From Daedaleopsis sinensis (lineage: Eukaryota > Basidiomycota > Agaricomycetes > Polyporales > Polyporaceae): a DNA stretch of 64,000 nt. The position numbers and the translations under genes were made by a program. Positions 1-11,799 of the stretch are shown in pieces; within the stretch, counting starts at the first letter, position 1, and every line of letters begins with the position of its first letter. The stretch is taken from contig CM066302.1 in NCBI GenBank assembly GCA_033807695.1, positions 4,278,001 through 4,342,000 on the forward strand. The letters are read 5' to 3'. Under the pieces are notes generated by a model, which saw nothing but the letters and a program-made list of their open reading frames with translations, did no database searches and had not been told where the DNA came from.

Positions 1-543
1 TGTCGAGCTTGGATCGGGCGGGGAGGCGCTGGTACCAGGATTACTGGGGGAGGTAGATGTCGGAGGGTCTGGGTGGGAGTCAGAGGTAGAAGCTCGAGTC
101 GGACTTGTAGTCGTTGCCGTAGGAGGAGGGGGTGGAGGGAGTGCCGTCGTCGTCGTCGTCGTTGGCGGAGGTGGCTGAGATCCGCCCAGACAGCTGTCAT
201 CGTCGCTTGCGAGTACCGTGAAGGGATGTGTATTCCCGCGGGCACCGCTGGCGTCGGTGACCTGGAACTGAGACGTCTTGCCTCCAGCGAGTCTGCCGTC
301 CCATGTCGCAGATGTGCTCGAGGTGCTGGCGAAGGTTTCGAAGTGCGCGCCGGTGGGCCCGTCGGCGGGAACGAGGATGGAGAAGGTAAATGGGGGCGTA
401 CCGCCAGAGATGGTAACGATCGTCTGGCTGCATTGTTGCGGAGTGTTCGATAAACTGATTTGTGGTATCGCAGCGGTGCTTGAAGGGAAAGAGAGTAAGA
501 GACCGATGGCGAAGTTGGTCCATGTGTGGCTTCGCGATGACAT
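1..543 (-). CDS. Single-pass surface protein, N-terminal part (runs off window)
   Basis: The reverse strand is open from an ATG at 543 to the window edge (181 codons, no stop), so only the N-terminal part is seen. A signal peptide (FAIGLLLSFPSSTAA) is followed by a small beta-sandwich-like ectodomain of about 100 residues. It has a Cys near residue 41, the motif GGTPPFTFSIL, and a closing DDDSCLGG. A Pro/Thr/Ser-rich stalk follows (TTTTTALPPPPPPTATTT). The Cys...GGxPPY pattern is common in Agaricomycete surface proteins and recurs in the gene at 14,181-15,742. By analogy with that gene, a membrane helix and cytoplasmic tail should lie beyond the window. Function is unknown; a wall-stress sensor or receptor-like role is only a guess. 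Confidence 0.7.
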   Translation of the reverse strand, partial: MSSRSHTWTNFAIGLLLSFPSSTAAIPQISLSNTPQQCSQTIVTISGGTPPFTFSILVPADGPTGAHFETFASTSSTSATWDGRLAGGKTSQFQVTDASGARGNTHPFTVLASDDDSCLGGSQPPPPTTTTTTALPPPPPPTATTTSPTRASTSDSHPDPPTSTSPSNPGTSASPPDPSST

Positions 544-2069
544 GGAGGGAAACTAAGGATATATCGGTACCCCTCAGTAATGGAATCGTACGAGGTACTA
601 GCCAACGTTCGTCGACGCACCTTGCAGAGTATGAATATGCAGACCTCCAGCCTCCTATCCTCCAGGGTCGGCGTTCAGAATCCCAGTACGGAGTATGAGC
701 AGAGCTGCGAGCGGTACCCTCTTAGAGTATACTGTGAAGTTCAATTGCATCAGCATATGGACAGGAGGATGCTTGGAGACATTCGTACCTTTCGACCACA
801 CCAGGGATGTCTATCAGGTGCTCGAAGCGGACGGGAAAGGGGAGGATAGCGTGGACGCCCACGTCGGGTTGGCCAACGATATTAGTAGTGGGAGGCCGTA
901 AGAACATGTGCGAAGTTATACCGAGTGGTGGCCAGCCGACGTCGCTGAGAAGTGAGATACGACCCTCGAATCGATACGATAGTGTCATCAAAGACAAAGG
1001 CCGATGGCCGTTTGAGCGGTTGAAGAGGTGGCATCTGCCAGACAGTAGCCGATACTGTCAGCTCGCAACAACACTGCCCGTTCCAGTAAGAGACGTAATA
1101 CGTAATCACGGGCACGGATGATCATATATGCCATAGGAATGCTTCGAGCTGAAGGGTATCCGGGTGCGCTCACTGGTCCAACAGACGCGGTAGGGCCCCT
1201 TGATGGAGTTTGTATCTGTGATGATAGAAGAAGGGAAGGTCAACGTGTCTAATGGGTATAACTTACTAACCAGACCTTAGCGGTCTCACAAATGTTCGGT
1301 TGCCAGACTTCCCATGGTCACAGGGCAAGATACACTAGGACACATTCTACGCATAGAGAACAAGGCCTGCATCCGACGATCGTTGACGCTGTCATACAAA
1401 ATGAGTGCCTGGCAAGTGCCTGGGGTCGTCATCAATTCATCAGGCGCGCGGTAAAGCTGTCGCTGCTCCTGAGGCACATACCTACACAGACATAGACCTT
1501 TTTCACCCGCCAGTGAGTTTGCAGTCGTGATCGACCAGAATAAAACGACGTGATCAACTGGAGTGCTATCACCCGGAGCAGCTGCGCACTACAGCTCAGT
1601 AACAACGTGCCCGACAGAGTCCAGAAACACTGTACTCACCTGCGCGCTCGTAGCTCGGGGTATCTCAAGCCCTGTATACGTTGACACTATTTATACAGCT
1701 TTACCCCATGAGAATACAATGTTGAATGGGAGAGCATAGGCTGTTGTAGCGACGAGCATTGTCCGGGGCTCTGGACGGCGTAACCCGTTTATCAAGCCTT
1801 TCCCGGCAGCGCATACGATAGTGACACGTACCACGTTGATGTTCCGGTGGTATAGCAGCGCACTTCGTTCCTCCCCAATGTGGACCGAGCGAACGGGGAG
1901 TTAGTTGCGTCCTCGCTCGCCTTGATGAGTAGCTCCTGAGAAGAAGCTTGTTCGAACTTGGTTTGGAGTGGGCCATTCCTGGCAAGGACGATTGATGAGG
2001 ATGGGGGGACTGAGGAGCTGATATGTTAGATGATAGATAGTAATAATAAATTATAAGATGTAATATAAC
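544..2069. other. Intergenic, no supported gene
   Basis: Only short overlapping reading frames of up to about 100 codons occur here. None has a recognisable motif, a credible splice pattern or a paralogue in the window. The last 100 bases are AT-rich and lie just past the stop of the helicase fragment, so they may be its 3' flank. Confidence 0.5.
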
Positions 2070-3857
2070 CTAAAGCTTAGTATACAGTAGAATGCTCATC
2101 TTATACTTACCGGCCTCCTGCAATTTTTTCCCTGACCAGTTGACAATATTACCGTAGTACAGAACCTTCCCATCATTTTCTGCACCATCGTGGTACCAGA
2201 CATCTCCTGACTTGTCAATAAACCTGCAGACAAAGTGAGAAGGAGTAAAGTAGATTATACCACACAGCCGGTACATCTGGTCAATATCAGGCCATACAAT
2301 CTGAGACTCTACTGTTATTTTCTGCTGTGCACGAATAGCTATAATGTTAGGTGAGTCGGTATAAGATAATGACCTGTGCATTTGACGCTTGCATTGTGGG
2401 CATTTCTTCTCAGATTTCTGGGAGAGCAAAGCACTGATCCATTGTGTGACTGTTTTCCCTTGATATCTACCGGATGTGGCTGGACTATTTTTCCACACAT
2501 AGTCATCACAAATCCATACTGCTTCAGCTTTGCTATTAGCAGGGCCATCATGGTCACATGCTCGGCATTTGTAGCACTGCTGTAGAATAGGGATGTCAAT
2601 CTTGATAATGTTCTCTAATAAGAGATATATATCAGTAGGCTCGCTCCCCCGAGGTCCTAGGTCAGGATGTGACACAGCCAATCTATTTCTCAATGTATCC
2701 CGTGCTCTCTGCAAAGTCATTGACTTGTTGTCCGGAAGAGTACCATCAAACAATACACCTAAGTCCGTGAGAATTTGACTTTGCTCTGGCATGTGATGTA
2801 TCCATGCCTCACGGCAGTCAGTATACAGGGTGAGCAACACAGTAAGCAGACTATCATATGCACAACTGTGGTTGACAGAATCCCATGGAAAGCCTGCAAA
2901 CATCTTGCCTGCTGGAGGTTTGGTTACTTTGATTCTCTTAGCTGGCTGAGGCTTTGTGGTCTGTTCAATCTCAGTCTCCTCATCCCGCTTACGCTTAGTA
3001 GCATTAGTTCTTGTAACATTGCTGACAGTCTGTAATGCTTGTGACCCCTGTGCGGATACAAATGCAGTCCTATCCCTTTTGACTTGCGGCTTTTCAACTT
3101 TCTCCTTGGTGCCGCTGTCAGCCTTGTCGGCCTTGCTGGATGACTGGTCTTTGGAAATTTTCACCAAAGTCCAGGGAGTATCTTCGGTCACCTTTTGAAT
3201 TGGGAAAGGATCACTAGCAGTCCACTTCAGAGCACTGTGGATAGTCTTGGGTACAAATTTTTCACCTTTCCATTGGCGGAAAGAATGAATAAGTTCATTT
3301 CTTGTAATTCCCGATACTTCGGGTGATATAGTACCAAGGTACCGCATTTTTGTGATTTCATCCAGCAACTCTAGCTCTCTAAACTCTTGCCTCAATGAGC
3401 CTGCAATACCTCCTGTCAATTTCCCGCTGTCAAATGACTGGACAATGATAGTTCCCTCAAGAGTTGAACCCCGTGACAAGCAAGTGTATACAGACTGGTG
3501 TGTTTGACAATTCTGCAGGTCACACACATTACTGGGCCTTGTACGTCCCTGTGAAGCAAAGTCTGTCATAGCAAAGTTGGGTACTACCGGTACTTGGTCA
3601 CGGTTTATTTCTAGTAGCATTCCATTGGGGAGTTTGCACTTCACTTTCTTGTTTACATGCGAAAGTGGGACAACATTCTCTGGAAGACCAGGGAGTTTTA
3701 TCGGAGTGGGAGCAGCTGTGAGCTTGACAAAAAGTGTCTCTAATGCAAATTTATCCTCAGTGATAGGCCGTGATGTCCATCCTACTACTATTCCTTCCGC
3801 ACCATTGGTAACTGAGCACTGAACGTACGCGAGGCGCAGCTCCGCGTAGCTGCTGTC
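2070..3857 (-). pseudogene. SF1 (Pif1/Helitron-like) helicase C-terminus fused to a USP-like peptidase, 5'-truncated
   Basis: The reverse strand is open from 3,857 to a stop at 2,070, but there is no credible start and no helicase motifs I-IV. The frame begins with VTNGAEGIVVGW and continues into two superfamily-1 signatures: motif V (FAMTDFASQGRT) and motif VI (YTCLSRGSTLEG). This matches the C-terminal core of Pif1-type helicases, such as those of Helitrons. After a charged linker with KRKR clusters comes a domain like peptidase C19. Its Cys box reads NHSCAYDSLLTVLL and its His box SHFVCRF...WYHDGAEN; paired cysteines between them (CYKCRACDH, CPQCKRQ) look like a USP zinc finger. I infer the 3' part of a mobile-element protein whose Rep and N-terminal helicase regions were lost. 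The usual Helitron CTRR end was not found, so the element class is uncertain. Confidence 0.65.
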
Positions 3858-4379
3858 TTACCTCAAGCAGGTGTTGATATGAGACGTACTATAGTCTTGT
3901 TTCGTGGTCTGTAGTACGGTGTAGACGTTAAGTGTAGGTGAAATCGTGGCATTCACCGGTGATGATCTTGAGAAAGTTAAACCTTGGTGAGCGTCTGATG
4001 TCCTGATCTCAACCGTCACGAGCGCTCGTTCGCACTCTCTATCGAGAACACTCAATCATATATGTCTTCGAGCTTCAACCTCCAAAATACTCTTGTAAGA
4101 GGGTATCCTACTCCCTCTGCCTTCAACTGATGGACTTTCTCGCAGAAACGACATATCACTAGCTAGTAGAGCAGTCTCGTACAATGAACCAATATAGCAG
4201 GTGGTACAGACAGTGTTGTCTTAGTCCAGTATCAAGGCCCGCAGAAATTACCAGCAACATTGTCTTCTCCTACAGAGTGCTCTTACACCTTGACTCAAGA
4301 CCAGTCAGGCCTCAGTCACGATCACAACTGATCTGGGCCGGGTCACGTTGCAATCACGACCAACTTGTGTTGATTCGTG
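3858..4379. other. Gap between helicase fragment and MULE-like element
   Basis: No gene is supported. The left boundary of the MULE-like element should lie here or in the first repeats that follow. I looked for an inverted match to the sequence around 11,480-11,520 and found only a weak similarity near 4,312-4,326, not enough to call a terminal inverted repeat. Confidence 0.4.
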
Positions 4380-4595
4380 CTCTACCCGCATCCGAATGCG
4401 CACACTCCGCGTCGGGTCGCGTTCACTCCGCATCGAGTCGTGTTCGGTCCGCGTTTAACCGCGCTCACTCCGCGTTAGCTCGCGTTCACTCCGCGTTGGC
4501 TCGCATTGACTCCGCGTTGGCTCGCGTTGACTCCGCGGCGGTTCGCGTTGACTCTGCGTTAGCTCGCGTTTATCCGCGTTGACTCGCGCCGCATC
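4380..4595. repeat. Degenerate tandem array, left subterminal region
   Basis: About fifteen imperfect units of 12-20 bases are built around TCGCGTTGACTC and CCGCGTTGGCTC. They alternate a CGCGTT core with an ACTCCGCG spacer. The same core in the same orientation recurs on the far side of the transposase gene at about 11,320-11,470, and I saw no such array elsewhere in the window. Paired arrays around a transposase gene suggest binding sites. Confidence 0.65.
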
Positions 4596-4740
4596 CACGT
4601 TGTATCACTTCCGCATTCACTCTGATCTGAATGTGAGTACTCCAAATTTTTGGGTGGTCGGGCCCGTCTCGTATCCGGTCGGATTGTCGGATACTTTCCG
4701 CTGTATGCCTCCATTTCAGGTGTACCGTTATCCGCGATAG

Positions 4741-5391
4741 ATGTGTATATGTAGCCATGCTCTCTGGTTCATGGGAACATCATCTCCAGGGTGTATCAAG
4801 CTCAAGCTCATCGCACAAGAAATACAAGAGACCGTGAAATATGGCCTGGGTATGATATCTCTTCGGTCACTGGCTACCCGGAAGTTTATTGACACATACT
4901 CACAGGGTTTCATCAAGCACATACTGTCCTACTTTACAGAGAAGGAAGCAACTCCTCTACCCGAAGAATGTCGCAATGCGACACATAATGAGCCCGTAAT
5001 ATCTACTGCCCGTACTCAGCAAGTAGTCGACACAGGTGAGCTTATTCCCTGGACACACTGTACCGCCTTACTGTCTCTAATAATCCTGACTAGCATCCGG
5101 AAGGATAGAGCCTCATGGGATGATCCCTATATACAATGCACAAGGTGCATTATTTCGTTCTTGAAAATACGAGGTATAGTCACTGAGAGCACTGGCATCA
5201 CAGGCAATATAGTGGGTTTACATTTGGCCTCATCGCCGAACGAGTATGCGAGGCCAATTGGGGTGTATCTTCCGCAAGTCCCCCCCAATGCCTCCCGCAC
5301 ATCTGCAGTTCGTGTTGCTCCGGGAATACACACAAACCTCCCAGGTAATGCTCGTTCCGTATGCGACAACAGCAGCCAGAAACTGACCTGA
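4741..5391 (+). CDS. Unassigned 216-residue ORF upstream of the transposase
   Basis: An ATG-initiated frame of 216 residues overlaps the first 31 bases of the transposase gene in another frame. It is hydrophilic with scattered Cys and His and no recognisable motif. It might be the 5' leader of the element, an accessory ORF, or chance. Its codon use does not resemble the adjacent transposase frame. I keep it only because it is the one long frame in this stretch. Confidence 0.2.
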   Translation: MCICSHALWFMGTSSPGCIKLKLIAQEIQETVKYGLGMISLRSLATRKFIDTYSQGFIKHILSYFTEKEATPLPEECRNATHNEPVISTARTQQVVDTGELIPWTHCTALLSLIILTSIRKDRASWDDPYIQCTRCIISFLKIRGIVTESTGITGNIVGLHLASSPNEYARPIGVYLPQVPPNASRTSAVRVAPGIHTNLPGNARSVCDNSSQKLT

Positions 5392-8300
5392 ATGTAGGTA
5401 TTCAACCAGTCGCTCAAGGTGCGAACAGCGCCTCTCAACCGGCACCGGCAAAACACGACGTCTCAGGCGACCCAACACAATCAGTCATCACGGGTAGCAA
5501 CCAAGATTGGGATGGATGGCCAGATGGGACCTTCGAGCGCACCTTCACCCTCACAGAGCTCCAACAGAATGGACAGCTCGCCGTTCACTGGTCATGTGCA
5601 GGCTCTGGCGCAAAGACTGGATCCGAGCAAGCGGAAGACTGGCGTCTTGGTCGGAAGCTCGAGCGTCGGTGTCGCGGTATTTTATCGTGCTTGAACCCTG
5701 ACTGCAAGGTCATCGTGCGGCCGAAGGTTAAACTTGGCGACATTGCTCAACAGCTCACAAGAAAGTGCATTTGCGGAGCGGAAATGCGACAAACACCGTG
5801 CAAGGCCCTCCAGACGTTAATGCGCTTCCGGCATGGTGTCCACTTTATTCACAGAGGCTACCACACCCATCCTCGTCCTACACACATTCTCCACCTTTTT
5901 GCGGACGAAGCGAACACTTTCGAGCAGCTGGTCACACAGAATCCTCGATCTGGTCCATTAGAGCTCCTAGTAGGGGTCCGAACCCTTCAGGGGCCGGGAG
6001 GGTCTGCGGCAGACATCTCCCCCGTCTTCCACAACAAGGATCGAATCTCGCATGAGCTGAAGAAGGTCCGTGCGAAGGATGCTACCCGCAACGGTGCAAG
6101 TGACTTCAGCATCGAGGCATTCTCGGAGTTCTGCAGCGAACACCCAGGCCTCATCATACACTCCGTCATGCGCGAGATTGTTGTGATCTCCATGCAGCAA
6201 CCTCTCATGCTCTCTGAGCTCGTCAAGGAGACTCGCATTACCTCGGAGCCGGTGAACGGCATTGTCTCTGATGCTGCTCATGGGTTTTGGAAGCAGAGAA
6301 ACTGTCTGCTCATCATCAGCTCTGCTTACTCGTCGACTCTACACTGCTGGGTTCCGGGCGTGCTCTCTTACTCCAACGGAGCGACAGCGGACCACTACCG
6401 GCATCACTTCTTAGCTCTGTTTCAGAGCATCGCTCGAGAACGGAGCAACAGAAATTGGGACACTTCTCGTGATGAGGACTTCGTGAATGTGAGTAGATTT
6501 TCATTGGTACTGGAGGCAGTAATAACTCACTGATCACAACGAATTAGGTCGTCGATTTTAGCGAGGCAGAGCGGACCGGCTTCATAGATGCATACGTAGA
6601 ATTTCGACAGACTGAGGGAACAACTCGCTCTCCAGCCGACCTCCGCAGCGCCGCCGGACACTTACTCAAGGGCTGTCAACAACATTTCCGATCTGGGGTC
6701 ACTCGTCTATCGCGCATAGGATCGGTGGTTCAACCTGACAAGGAGCGACGGTTCCGTACACTCACTGAGGATCTACTCACTGCAAACAACCTTGAAGACT
6801 TCCGCCTCGTTGCTGAAGACCTTCTTAAAGAGTTCCCTCGCGCAACTCCATGGCTTAGCTGGTGGCTCCGAGAGGAACATGCGTCCATGTTATTCCAATC
6901 ACAACGTCTCATGGAGCCCATCCTGTGGGAGTCCGTTCCGAGCACTACCAATGCAGAAGAAGCTATGCATTTCAAGATATACACTGCTGTCGGGAAACAC
7001 CACAACTTTATGGAAGGCATGCGTGCACTCGAACGATTTGTGAGGCACTATGACAAGTTAATTGCAAGTGCAACCGGTAATTACTTTTCACGCTCAGATG
7101 CTTATGCTATATACTCATATACTGCTGCAGTTGGCACCAAGATAAGCTATGGACAGCCAGAGCGTTGGAAAGTGATCGCCAAGCAGCATGGCCGTACGAA
7201 ACTCAATCGCCAGCCACATCGTCTCACAGACAAGTCATCCAAGCCTTCCAAAGGTATCCGGAGAGTGGCCTCTCGATATAAAAACGACGGTCGGCCGCCA
7301 GACACGGCGAAAGCCCTCGTTCAGAGGCGAAAGCGCAAGGGCAGCAAAGTTGCAACGCCGTCAGAGAGCCTCAGTACCACGGAATGGAGCGGCCTTCTAA
7401 ACACACCTGACGATGTTTCACACAACCAGACTGTGTTGTTTCGGAACTCTCCCACCTTCCACACATCCTCGCCACCTGCAGTGGGATCAAACTCACTCGC
7501 ATCAGTTAAATCTGCGCCACAATCGGCACCATTGGGCCGCCTGCTCCCCAGCTACAAGTGGATCAACAACTCGTGCTGGCTCGACAATTCGCTGGAGACA
7601 CTCTGGAATCTTATCCGGCAGGACTTCAATAGCTTTGCTGAATGCTTCTCCAACATCCACAATCCTGAGGGCGCTGGAATCTATCAGCTATATCAAATGT
7701 TTGATCGCCGTCGCACGCTCTACATCGAGTCCAGCTCCAACTACTCTGTTCGGGTGCTCAGCGAGCAGCGTGACGGATTCCGGGTCATGCTAGCTGACCG
7801 ACGACTTCACCACAATCGTACTATTATCTCTCGAGCTGACGAGAGCGACAATTTAACGGTATGTAATGATATTATACTCATCACTCCATATGAAACTTAC
7901 CATGTGATATGTCTATAGGTATGGCTAGGCGACTTGCTTGTAGCATCGGCTACTCCAGACCCTGTTAAATTTGGATTGGCGCATGCCTACTTCCGGTGTT
8001 ACTACATTCAAATCTATTCGTGTACTGGACGATTCAACGACACCCCTCATCCCCACTACCGGGTCACCAACCGACTTCCATTCCGCTTCCATATGCAGCT
8101 CACTAGTGCTGATCATGCTGCACATGGCGGAAGTACACTGTCCTGGTTGCGAAGCATAGTCGACATGAAGAGCCCTGCTGAAGAGCTCGGTGAATGCTGG
8201 AGAAATACCGAAGACTATGTCCATAGGTCACCTACATCTGATGTGGTACATCGATGCTCTGGACTTCCAGCTATAAAGGAGGTCTATGTGTCCCTCCCTA

Positions 8301-10770
8301 TCGCTCTCATGCTCGAAACCCCCGCTACAAGATGGGACTGTCCTGAGAAGATTGTCGTATACACGAAGAACATCAAAACTGGACGCCCAGAAGTTATCTA
8401 TGACCTTGTCAGCCGGGTCTTCTCCTCTCAGGTTCAAGTCGAAGACTTCGACCCGGATGATGCTCTTGCTTTCCAAGCAGCTCAAGGACCTCCGCCGCTC
8501 GCACACTTTATCTCTCGCCATGTACATCACACTGCCAAAGACCCTGGGCCCCTCCGCGGACGACAGGCTCACATAGCACTCTATGATGACATCGCAAATG
8601 GAGGTCTATCCATTGTGTCTTCCAAGAGCAAGGTTTCGACACACCTCGCCGGCCCTGAAGAGCAACTCCAGCCTCCCCTTCCGCCCAGATATCACACCTG
8701 TCTAGTGGCCTATCACCTACGCGGCGGCCGGGCTACACAGCAGGCACTCTATCAATATCAGCTCGCCATGCTACAGCAGCTGCATCACATCAAGTTGTCA
8801 GATGAACGGCTGGAGCGGATCTCTCAAGCACAGACAGGCCTGAACCTTAACGGTGTCTTTGTCGTTCCTGAGAAGGATCGACCATGGCACTCGCCCCGTT
8901 CAAACATGCGGCAGCGGTTCACAGACTACGAGACACATGCGCAAACACCCCGACCTATGGGCCGAGGCAGAGGGGTGGCTCCGGGTACTGCTGCGACTCG
9001 GAGACTTAAACGTCCGCCACAAACCCCCGAGTCCGAAAGTACAACATCACCTTCCTCCCAAGACCGCAGTCATTACACCTCAAGCTCAGCACATCTCTCA
9101 CCCATCCGGGACGACACCGGGAATCATGACAGGAAGAGTACAAGCGATGATGAGCAGCCTGCTCGGAGCGGGTCACCTCATCCTGTTCGTTGCAGGTGCG
9201 GCACTGAAGGAGACGGAAACATGATGACAGATGGACTTGAGACCATCCAGTGCGACTCATGTCAGCAGTACTCGCATCTTGCCTGTCAGCGCAATGGACG
9301 TGCCAATGGGTTGTCTGAGGCAGAAAGGTTTGAGTGCGACGAGTGCACCGGTCGAAATATACTCCCATCTTATCAATTCGAAGCCAATGATAGGTATGTC
9401 ATTACAACATTATTAGAGCCCCTCCTGACCGTGATGTTGTATCTCTGCTGCAGTCATTCTGACCTCGACGCAGAGGATAACGATACAGAATCCCAACCAT
9501 TGAGTCGCCGACTAGGGTATGTTACTGACACGGTGCCATCTTATCATGAACATGATGTTTATTGACACAATTGATTTAATAGCCCGGGTAAGGGTATCTT
9601 GTTCCGTCACGGTGACTTCTGGTATCCCGGACGATTGCTGCAACTTGAAGCATCATCTCCTCATCGTCTATGGCGTATCCGTCCCTGGAGACTTAACAAT
9701 TACTGGACCTCACCTCCCGCTGACCGTCGACTCATTCCAGAGGCCGACATAGTGGACGACCTATGGAATGATCGTAAAGGACGCCGCAAAATCCGGGTGA
9801 GCTTCGAATTCTAGACAACCAACATTTGTGTTATAGCCTGACATTTAACACAGCTTGGTAAATGGTCTCTTGCCTCGCGTATGGAGAGTGAAGAGGATAT
9901 ACTGGCCGACCCGGGTGCACGCCCATACACACAAGAAGTCGATGAAGCGCTAAGCCCACACACGGAAACCTTACAGTTACTATTTGCGTGGGAGCCAGGA
10001 AACCCAACCACTTTGAACACGGACGAGGTTCCTGTCCTCGCACTCGTCCAGAGCAAGCAGACGTCCTCCATCTATGCATACCGCGCAGGTGTTGTGCCAT
10101 TTGTAGGAAATCTCGACATAGATTCACGAGCGCAAATCCACAACTGGATAGACGTCAACATACAAGGTGCCAGGGCTAATCGACATCTCTGGATCGGCCG
10201 ATATCTCGTCGCTCATGCAATTACCCTACTACTGGTGGCACGTATGCGACCAGAGTCTCCGAGTCCTCCTTCTCACAGCGAAGAAGAACTTCTTAAGGAA
10301 GCCTGGAAGGTTCAGCTGGGCCCGTCCGGAGACATCTCACAAGCTGACCTCTCAGATGGTTCCGATCCGACTCAGCCTGCCCTCAGACCTGTTGATGTCG
10401 ATGCAGAGTGCGTCAGAGCTCTTGAACGTCGCATGTTCGAGCGTTCAGCCGCAGCCGGAGAGGCAGGGTGGTACCAATGGGGGCTCGACTCTGGAGAGCA
10501 TCAAGACCAATGGGATCCATATGAAGACACCCCCAGTGATTGGATCGTTGGTGATTGGTGGCCAGACGACGAAGAGGATCTCATGAAGGTATGCTAACTT
10601 GTCCTTGATAGACATCATGAGCATATCTGATTGTCCTCTAGACAGGCCGTCGCTTTATCGGGTTATCTGACCCTCAACATCAGACGAAGCGTCGAGAAGA
10701 CCAACCGGGGTTGAAACGAAAGGCGCCATCTCCTCGCCCTGTGAATAAGCGGCGCAAAGTGGACGGATAG
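5361..10770 (+). CDS. MULE transposase fused to USP-like peptidase, PHD finger and BAH/Tudor-like region
   Basis: Seven exons (5361-6488, 6548-7858, 7919-9393, 9454-9516, 9583-9796, 9854-10588, 10642-10770) keep frame throughout and give 1,684 residues. Residues about 100-175 form a GCM-like zinc domain (CLNPDC, KCICGAEM, IHRGYHTH). A MULE-type DDE core follows; probable catalytic acids are Asp304 (IVSDAAHGFW), Asp379 (VVDFSEAER) and Glu513/514 (TTNAEEAMHFKIY). Residues 700-1045 look like a C19 peptidase: Cys719 in WINNSCWLDNSLETLW, His1009 in AHFISRHV, Asp1036/1037 in LYDDIANGG. A PHD finger spans 1238-1290 (CRCG, CDSC, HLAC, CDEC). A short region starting FRHGDFWYPGRLLQ resembles a BAH or Tudor-like reader. 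The C-terminus carries basic nuclear-signal-like clusters. The transposase call is firm; active peptidase chemistry is inferred from box motifs only. Confidence 0.85.
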
Positions 10771-11199: not shown

Positions 11200-11475
11200 C
11201 CTCGGCTACACGCGTTCGTGACCGCGTCAATCGCGTAATATATACAGTGCTCTTTCGCACTTACCTTCTCTTCCTGTCGGCTCTTTGCACTAGTCCTCCC
11301 AGCCACAAAGCACGACGCACTGCGGTCAAGCTCACGTTGAGGTCGCGTTACCCCCCATTGAACCCGCGTTGAAGCCGCATTTAGGTCGCGTTGACACCGC
11401 GTTGAGTACGCGCTCACTCGCGCAGGTTCGCGTCGCGCCGCGTTGACACGCGTTGCTCCGCGTTGATTTTCCTGT
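11200..11475. repeat. Degenerate tandem array, right subterminal region
   Basis: Units around CGCGTTGACACC and CGCGTTGAAGCCGC repeat about ten times, most densely from 11,320. They match the left array at 4,380-4,595 in sequence and orientation. The interval 10,771-11,200 before it has loose CCCGCTGCCCGCC repeats and no gene. Confidence 0.6.
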
Positions 11476-11799
11476 GCCCGGTTACCGTCACTGACCGATA
11501 CGCTCTGTCACCATCTCCGACTTCTCTCTTGTGGTCGTTTCTTGATGGTATCCCTGGCTCGCATCGCAGTGCGGTCCCAGACATTGATAGGGAGCCTTCG
11601 TGCTTTGCTCACGAGTTGAACCCTTTGGCTTTCAAGAGTCCTCATCTTATGAGCGATACTAGATCTGCTCTCCGAGTTGGTTAAATGTACGTTCGCGCCC
11701 TATGCAGGCCCATCGGTTTGACAGACACACTGATATACTTATTACTCCTCCTATACCTTGCAGTTGCCATCCGGTCCTGCTGAACGGTGCCACTGAACG

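What the first reader, a model, noticed from the sequence alone, without database searches (positions are those of the whole stretch)
5361..10770. One polypeptide joins MULE transposase, USP-like peptidase and PHD finger
Seen: seven exons remain in frame to give 1,684 residues with GCM-like zinc domain, DDE acids, Cys719/His1009/Asp1036 peptidase boxes and a PHD finger, followed by a BAH/Tudor-like region. Known: MULE transposases usually lack peptidase and histone-reader domains. Inference: the element could read chromatin through PHD and remove ubiquitin, for example from histones or from itself, to favour integration or survive silencing.
Basis: partly seen in the sequence, partly recalled or inferred. 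Interest (0 to 1): 0.75.

Follow-up and report, generated by a model that had tools for sequence, protein, structure and literature searches.

The report
Jumping gene carrying deubiquitinase and reader
A mushroom genome holds a cut-and-paste jumping gene whose single large enzyme also carries a ubiquitin-protease-like domain and two modules of the kind that read chromatin marks, which suggests, but does not prove, that the element interferes with host protein and chromatin control when it moves.

Summary
One spliced gene encodes a GCM-type zinc domain, a DDE transposase core, a USP (C19) peptidase fold, a PHD finger and a further barrel domain. The gene model needs correction. The start is at 4841, not 5361 (which lies in an intron). 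A 54-nt intron at 7077-7130 was read through. The result is 12 exons and 1,764 residues. The domain after the PHD resembles MRG-type chromo-barrel/Tudor domains, not BAH.

Transposase-protease fusions and PHD fingers in transposases are already in print (Ginger1/Mutator with Ulp1, OTU, PHD; VTD in Helitrons). I rate this a new variant of a known kind. Deubiquitinase activity and histone reading are inferred, not shown.

The parts
4841..10770 (+). Whole gene, 12 exons: 4841-4849, 4906-5035, 5094-5144, 5204-5344, 5398-6488, 6548-7076, 7131-7858, 7919-9393, 9454-9516, 9583-9796, 9854-10588, 10642-10770; 1,764 aa
   Evidence: the C4 copy models with 13 introns, 11 of them at corresponding places by my reading
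5508..5891 (+). GCM-type zinc DNA-binding domain (aa 148-275)
6270..6272 (+). First catalytic Asp (D402, VSDAAHG)
   Evidence: 42 of 42 rows
6554..6556 (+). Second catalytic Asp (D477, VVDFSEAE)
   Evidence: 41 of 42 rows
6959..6961 (+). Catalytic Glu (E612, TNAEE)
   Evidence: 39 of 39 filled rows
7547..8740 (+). USP-fold (C19-like) peptidase domain (aa ~790-1167, intron 7859-7918 inside)
7574..7576 (+).
   Evidence: 30 of 30 filled rows, 12 gaps
8504..8506 (+).
   Evidence: 39 of 39 filled rows
8585..8587 (+).
   Evidence: D 35, N 4, K 1 of 40 filled rows
9176..9361 (+). PHD finger (aa 1313-1374)
9583..9796 (+). Chromo-barrel/Tudor-like domain (aa ~1406-1477)
9854..10588 (+). Conserved helical C-terminal region (aa 1478-1722), no fold assigned
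   Evidence: secondary structure; 63% identical in the C4 copy
10714..10758 (+). Basic, NLS-like C-terminal tail (KRKAPSPRPVNKRRK)
   Evidence: sequence; a similar basic tail in the C4 copy
4403..4588 (+). Left subterminal 21-bp tandem repeats (CGCGTYG units)
   Evidence: shared with the C4 copy
11337..11466 (+). Right subterminal repeats
11459..11479 (-). Right terminal inverted repeat (exact match to the right-end pattern, as are the C4 copy and two small relatives)

Best explanation
The locus is a copy of a MULE-type (Mutator-like) cut-and-paste DNA transposon of mushroom-forming fungi that encodes one ~1,760-residue transposase; formal membership of the superfamily is likely but not proven. 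Shown or well supported: the GCM-type zinc domain, the DDE core, a USP-fold peptidase with an intact triad, the PHD finger, a chromo-barrel/Tudor-like domain and a helical C-terminus lie in one spliced gene; a related copy elsewhere in the genome has short terminal inverted repeats and an exact 9-bp target-site duplication, and tiny elements share its ends. Inferred mechanism: the GCM domain binds the CGCG-rich subterminal repeats, the DDE core cuts and inserts with a staggered 9-bp join, and the PHD and barrel tether the complex to methylated histone H3 in active chromatin. The USP removes ubiquitin from the transposase or from proteins beside it, most likely to keep the transposition complex from degradation or silencing. 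The window copy has an intact gene and right end but no detectable left end, so it probably no longer moves itself and could act only in trans.
Against: No Pfam MULE hit in any of the 13 full proteins scanned (the window protein and 12 of 41 homologues). Profile comparison with two of the genome's own Pfam-MULE transposases was not significant (probability 1.1, E 0.05). TIRs are short and imperfect, not the >100 bp typical of MULEs. No left TIR at the window copy. Only two copies of the coding region were found in the genome (counts are lower bounds). The USP is seen by fold only: no Pfam or PDB sequence hit. 12 of 42 rows have no residue at the USP Cys, through deletion or faulty gene models. 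The left-end pattern is weaker evidence than the right-end one: 6 hits at up to 3 mismatches against 2 control hits, though only the C4 copy and the 148-bp element match exactly. The C4 copy reads through only if a 48-nt stretch with an in-frame stop is taken as an intron. That the bracovirus protein is a Mutator-type transposase is recalled, not checked.
Confidence: 0.62

Rival explanations
1. The window copy is a domesticated host gene: a former transposase kept for a cellular job (chromatin-linked deubiquitination), no longer a mobile element.
For: Intact 12-exon frame, no detectable left TIR, low copy number, low dN across the domains against the C4 copy; close partial homologues in Daedaleopsis nitida, 77% identical over 49% and 57% over 93% of the C-terminal query.
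Against: The C4 relative is flanked by TIRs and an exact 9-bp duplication; subterminal repeats and the right TIR are still kept at the window copy; several homologues within one species, for example four entries from Mycena metata and three from Coprinopsis sp. MPI-PUGE-AT-0042, look like transposon families. dS is saturated or undefined, so the low dN mostly reflects past selection on the two lineages.
Confidence: 0.15
2. Transposase and peptidase/PHD parts are separate transcripts or genes that only look joined.
For: Some database models contain only the C-terminal part (P0047 637 aa, P0049 581 aa, P0050 311 aa); no RNA data here.
Against: P0047 starts inside the USP domain, just after its catalytic boxes, which is not a natural domain boundary, so a model split is likelier. 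Introns lie inside domains in frame, and 17 of 41 annotated homologues carry all four signature sets in one protein.
Confidence: 0.06
3. The USP domain is present but does not act on ubiquitin chains: it is a scaffold or acts on another modifier such as SUMO, ISG15-like or NEDD8-like proteins.
Against: Cys invariant in 30 of 30, His in 39 of 39 and Asp/Asn in 39 of 40 filled rows, whereas Pan2 has lost its catalytic residues (recalled).
Confidence: 0.2

Closest known systems
Mutator elements with Ulp1 (named Kaonashi-type in plants, by recall) and Ginger1 transposases with OTU, Ulp1 and PHD (PMC2836005)
   Same: DDE transposon encoding a ubiquitin/SUMO-type cysteine protease, one of 16 listed Ginger1 families also with a PHD finger; the legend of its Figure 1e names Ulp1 and PHD domains in Ginger1 and Mutator transposases; the authors already proposed a role of the ubiquitin pathway in transposition (passages and section 5 read).
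   Different: There the protease is OTU or Ulp1, not USP/C19 (one C19 case is named, fused to transposase_11 in Trichomonas); Ginger1 has a Gypsy-integrase core and 4-bp duplications; no GCM domain or chromo-barrel is described in what I read.
VTD and OTU deubiquitinases in Helitrons (PMC9741609)
   Same: Transposon-borne deubiquitinase, suggested to protect proteins needed for transposition (passages read).
   Different: Rolling-circle Helitrons, papain-like VTD with Asp-x-His geometry; here a DDE transposase with a USP fold.
MULEs such as Muta1 of Aedes aegypti (PMC5225508)
   Same: N-terminal zinc DNA-binding domain, DDE plus conserved His and Trp, 8-10 bp duplications, subterminal tandem repeats in Muta1 (passages and section 11 read).
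   Different: The Aedes transposases there are 416-554 aa with FLYWCH or SWIM fingers and the elements have long TIRs; here ~1,760 aa with a GCM domain, USP, PHD and barrel, and short TIRs. His and Trp sit at other distances.
RAG1/RAG2 recombinase (PMC11844651, a preprint)
   Same: Transposase-derived enzyme tied to a PHD finger that reads H3K4me3 and gates DNA cleavage and transposition (passages read).
   Different: The PHD is on a second protein there; different transposase superfamily; no USP domain (recalled).

Membership tests
Mutator/MULE superfamily | 8-10 bp target-site duplication | tested here: met
   GATTCAAAC on both sides of the C4 copy; 9 bp at the 148-bp relative and 8 bp at the 58-bp one. 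The window copy itself could not be tested: no left end found.
Mutator/MULE superfamily | DDE triad with a conserved His and Trp between second D and E | tested here: met
   D, D, E in 42/42, 41/42, 39/39 rows; C and H of the CxxH in 38 and 39 of 40; WW 38 of 39. D-D 75 and D-E 135 residues here, 69 and 136 in Muta1; but His 43 after the second D against 24, and Trp 32-33 before the Glu against 18, so that these are the same His and Trp is inference.
Mutator/MULE superfamily | Profile match to MULE transposases (PF10551 or the genome's own MULEs) | tested here: inconclusive
   No Pfam MULE hit in 13 proteins; hhalign of A5 against two genome MULEs probability 1.1, with thin alignments.
Mutator/MULE superfamily | Long terminal inverted repeats (>100 bp; typical of the superfamily, not defining) | tested here: not met
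   C4 copy TIR about 45 bp, 29 of 45 identical. PMC5225508 calls long TIRs typical; MULEs without long TIRs are known (recalled).
Mutator/MULE superfamily | WRKY-GCM1-type N-terminal zinc domain | tested here: met
   GCM1 1odh E 6.1e-7 and 6.6e-8; that MULEs carry such fingers rests on recall and on the title of Babu et al. 2006 in a reference list.
USP (peptidase C19) | USP fold | tested here: met
USP (peptidase C19) | Cys-His-Asp/Asn triad in the Cys and His boxes | tested here: met
   30/30, 39/39, 39/40 filled rows.
USP (peptidase C19) | Cleaves ubiquitin | not testable with these tools
   Needs an enzyme assay.
PHD finger | C4HC3 zinc pattern and PHD profile | tested here: met
   Each ligand kept in 30-34 of 32-36 filled rows; Pfam PHD over the cut-off in 3 of 12 homologues scanned and below it in the window protein; Bye1 E 2.6e-11.
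PHD finger | Aromatic cage residue for methyl-lysine | tested here: inconclusive
   Trp at the presumed cage position in 25 of 36 filled rows, Tyr in the window copy; which position forms the cage is recalled.
Chromo-barrel/Tudor (Royal) family | Beta barrel matching MRG/Tudor domains | tested here: inconclusive
BAH domain | BAH fold after the PHD | tested here: inconclusive
   The one BAH-bearing row shown (Ash1L PHD-BAH) aligned through its PHD part; the barrel matched chromo-barrel/Tudor entries.

The most novel reading that the evidence does not exclude
The element is a self-contained chromatin-guided integration machine. PHD and barrel together read the H3K4me/H3K36me marks of active genes, and the USP strips ubiquitin at the target (for example from H2B) or from the transposase. 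One polypeptide would then choose, open and hold its insertion site and resist host silencing, and this USP arrangement would be an independent invention beside the OTU, Ulp1 and VTD proteases of other transposons.
Probability: 0.25. Interest if true: 0.75.

Novelty: new variant of a known kind. Interest (0 to 1): 0.5.

Why it matters
Why several unrelated transposon classes carry proteases of the ubiquitin/SUMO kind is an open question (raised in PMC2836005 and PMC9741609). This family adds a USP-fold case in a DDE transposase, joined to two histone-reader-like modules in one protein and conserved across mushroom-forming fungi. With defined ends at the C4 copy, a small natural substrate (the 148-bp relative) and a single protein, the role of deubiquitination and of histone reading in transposition could be tested directly in yeast.

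Tried and rejected
TIR/TSD search without outside knowledge failed at both copies; a candidate at C4 (3050/10454 of the fetched stretch, score 17; best of 4 shuffles 15) was dropped once the real ends were found through the shared right-end sequence. A left-end candidate for the window copy at 4340 scored 7, inside the range 4-8 of 20 shuffles, and was rejected.

The third homologue search, with words from the USP region alone, found nothing at E <= 0.001; it did not even return the known relatives, so it says nothing about other architectures. hhalign against genome MULEs was not significant. GCM-like sites (AYGCGG, motif recalled) exceed dinucleotide shuffles in the window's left and right repeats and in the C4 left region (0 of 300 shuffles reach the count each), less so in the C4 right region (16 of 300) and not in the 148-bp element (96 of 300), so I do not claim GCM binding as shown; CGCGTYG is in excess in all five regions (0, 0, 0, 0 and 1 of 300). 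Ten literature searches were run. Those aimed at a fungal MULE with ubiquitin, peptidase or PHD domains listed no direct report; this covers only the held open-licence library, and two papers I asked for by DOI were not held. PMC10799480, on co-opted fungal transposons, was searched for MULE, PHD and ubiquitin and named no such fusion in the passages shown.

Full report
What was checked. The window belongs to a 51.6-Mb, 24-contig genome (contig C3). The best-scoring named relative is in Trametes sanguinea and the closest C-terminal ones in Daedaleopsis nitida, so the organism is probably a polypore (inference).

Gene model. The 5' end is wrong in the finding. Several homologues begin with a short motif such as MVLGFLKHVYRYF... 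followed by IPIYD..G.I.GY (for example P0020). MIPIYNAQGNIVG), over four exons, and the second copy on C4 does likewise. A further 54-nt stretch, 7077-7130, is open but is an intron: over 12 of its codons only 1-2 of 42 aligned rows have residues and over the rest 3-8, and the C4 copy has an intron of frame-breaking length there (71 nt). The corrected model has 12 exons and 1,764 residues. Residues in this numbering: D402, D477, E612, C799, H1089, D1116.

Family. One search returned 41 proteins, all with names of mushroom-forming fungi (class Agaricomycetes by recall); 12 of them, 1,426-1,749 aa long, align over 92-99% of the query at 28-35% identity. In the 42-row alignment the signature residues are present for GCM in 36, DDE in 38, USP in 28 and PHD in 29 rows, and all four sets in 18, the query included. 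Rows that miss a set include entries labelled partial and models that skip exons, so true losses and annotation faults cannot be told apart. No row was dropped before counting.

Transposase. The DDE residues, a CxxH and a WW pair are nearly invariant. The D-D and D-E spacings (75 and 135) are close to those of the mosquito MULE Muta1 (69 and 136); the His and Trp distances differ (PMC5225508, section 11). The secondary structure around the first two Asp is strand-strand-strand-helix-strand as in RNase H folds (my reading). The best viral match to the whole model is an uncharacterised protein of Bracoviriform inaniti (E 8.3e-11, 569 alignment columns, rmsd 20). Insect viruses are reported to carry Phantom, a subclass of Mutator transposons (a title in a reference list); that this protein is one is recalled, not checked. 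Against this, Pfam's MULE model does not hit any of 13 proteins scanned, and a profile comparison with two of the genome's own MULEs is not significant. I therefore call it MULE-type on ends, motifs and GCM domain, with the transposase profile unproven.

Mobility. The coding region was found twice in the genome (one search adds one weak hit, E 2.6e-4; such counts are lower bounds). The C4 copy, modelled as 1,756 aa, is 58% identical in protein (990 of 1,713). NG86 gives dN 0.19-0.46 in the domain regions and 0.67-0.77 in the N-terminus and linkers; dS is 2.3-2.7 in 4 of 10 parts and undefined in 6; YN00 ran for two parts only (dS 2.3 for the N-terminus and 1.3 for GCM). So the two copies are old relatives, both under past constraint. 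The C4 copy is bounded by GGGCATGTAGAAATCAACGCG... and ...GATTTTCCTGTGCCC with GATTCAAAC on both sides, 7,993 bp. A 148-bp element on C8 and a 58-bp one on C4 have the same ends and 9- and 8-bp duplications. The right-end pattern has 4 exact hits and 11 hits at up to 3 mismatches against 0 for the reversed control; the left-end pattern has 2 exact hits and 6 at up to 3 mismatches against 2 control hits. 21-bp subterminal repeats are shared by both large copies.

The window copy. Its right end is intact (11459-11479) but no left end was found in window 1-5000 or among the genome-wide hits. To the left lies, at 1955-3820, a piece 98.1% identical to an element on C7 with a 2,638-aa open frame that reads as a Helitron RepHel (my reading) and ends in a peptidase-like stretch; its protein is 98-100% identical to ten other places over nearly its whole length. 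The loss of the left end may be tied to that junction (inference). The window copy therefore looks immobile in cis though its protein may be made.

Known or new. Passages and section 5 of PMC2836005 list Ginger1 transposases with OTU, Ulp1 and in one family Ulp1+PHD, state that Ulp1 is found in Mutator elements, and name a Trichomonas transposase with a C19 peptidase. PMC9741609 (passages) describes deubiquitinases in Helitrons. The principle is thus known. The specific arrangement of GCM, DDE, USP, PHD and chromo-barrel in one protein was not met in the listings of the searches run here, which cover only an open-licence library.

Verdict. Real, conserved, and a good test case for why transposons carry such proteases; a new variant of a known kind. 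Interest 0.5.

Noticed in passing
window 1955-3820 (-): Truncated copy of a Helitron-like element, 98.1% identical to a copy on C7. Translated, it is 98-100% identical to ten other places over nearly its whole length, most of them inside longer open frames of up to 2,638 aa. The full frame ends in a peptidase-like stretch with Cys, His and Asp boxes (by eye), so a second transposon class of this genome may also carry a deubiquitinase-like domain; its fold was not tested.
   Followed up: partly
G000:C4:570299-578291 (L003/L004): Complete 7,993-bp relative with exact 9-bp target-site duplication; the exactness suggests a much younger insertion than the deep divergence between the two copies, i.e. 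two separate lineages of the element.
   Followed up: yes
L031 (C8:2147834-2147981) and L038 (C4:4594861): 148-bp and 58-bp elements with the same ends and 9- and 8-bp duplications: very small natural substrates.
   Followed up: partly
   Followed up: no
L040 (C1:82631) and L041 (C1:120782): Two further right-end-like sequences (3 mismatches) 38 kb apart in opposite orientation, both flanked by the same GATCCAAAC/GTTTGGATC sequence; possibly another element family or an inverted duplication.
   Followed up: no
L047-L050 (C12, C10, C5, C9): Four loci that match Pfam's MULE model in the same genome, on C12 with a 1,036-aa open frame; the C12 and C10 ones showed no significant profile similarity to the present transposase.
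   Followed up: partly
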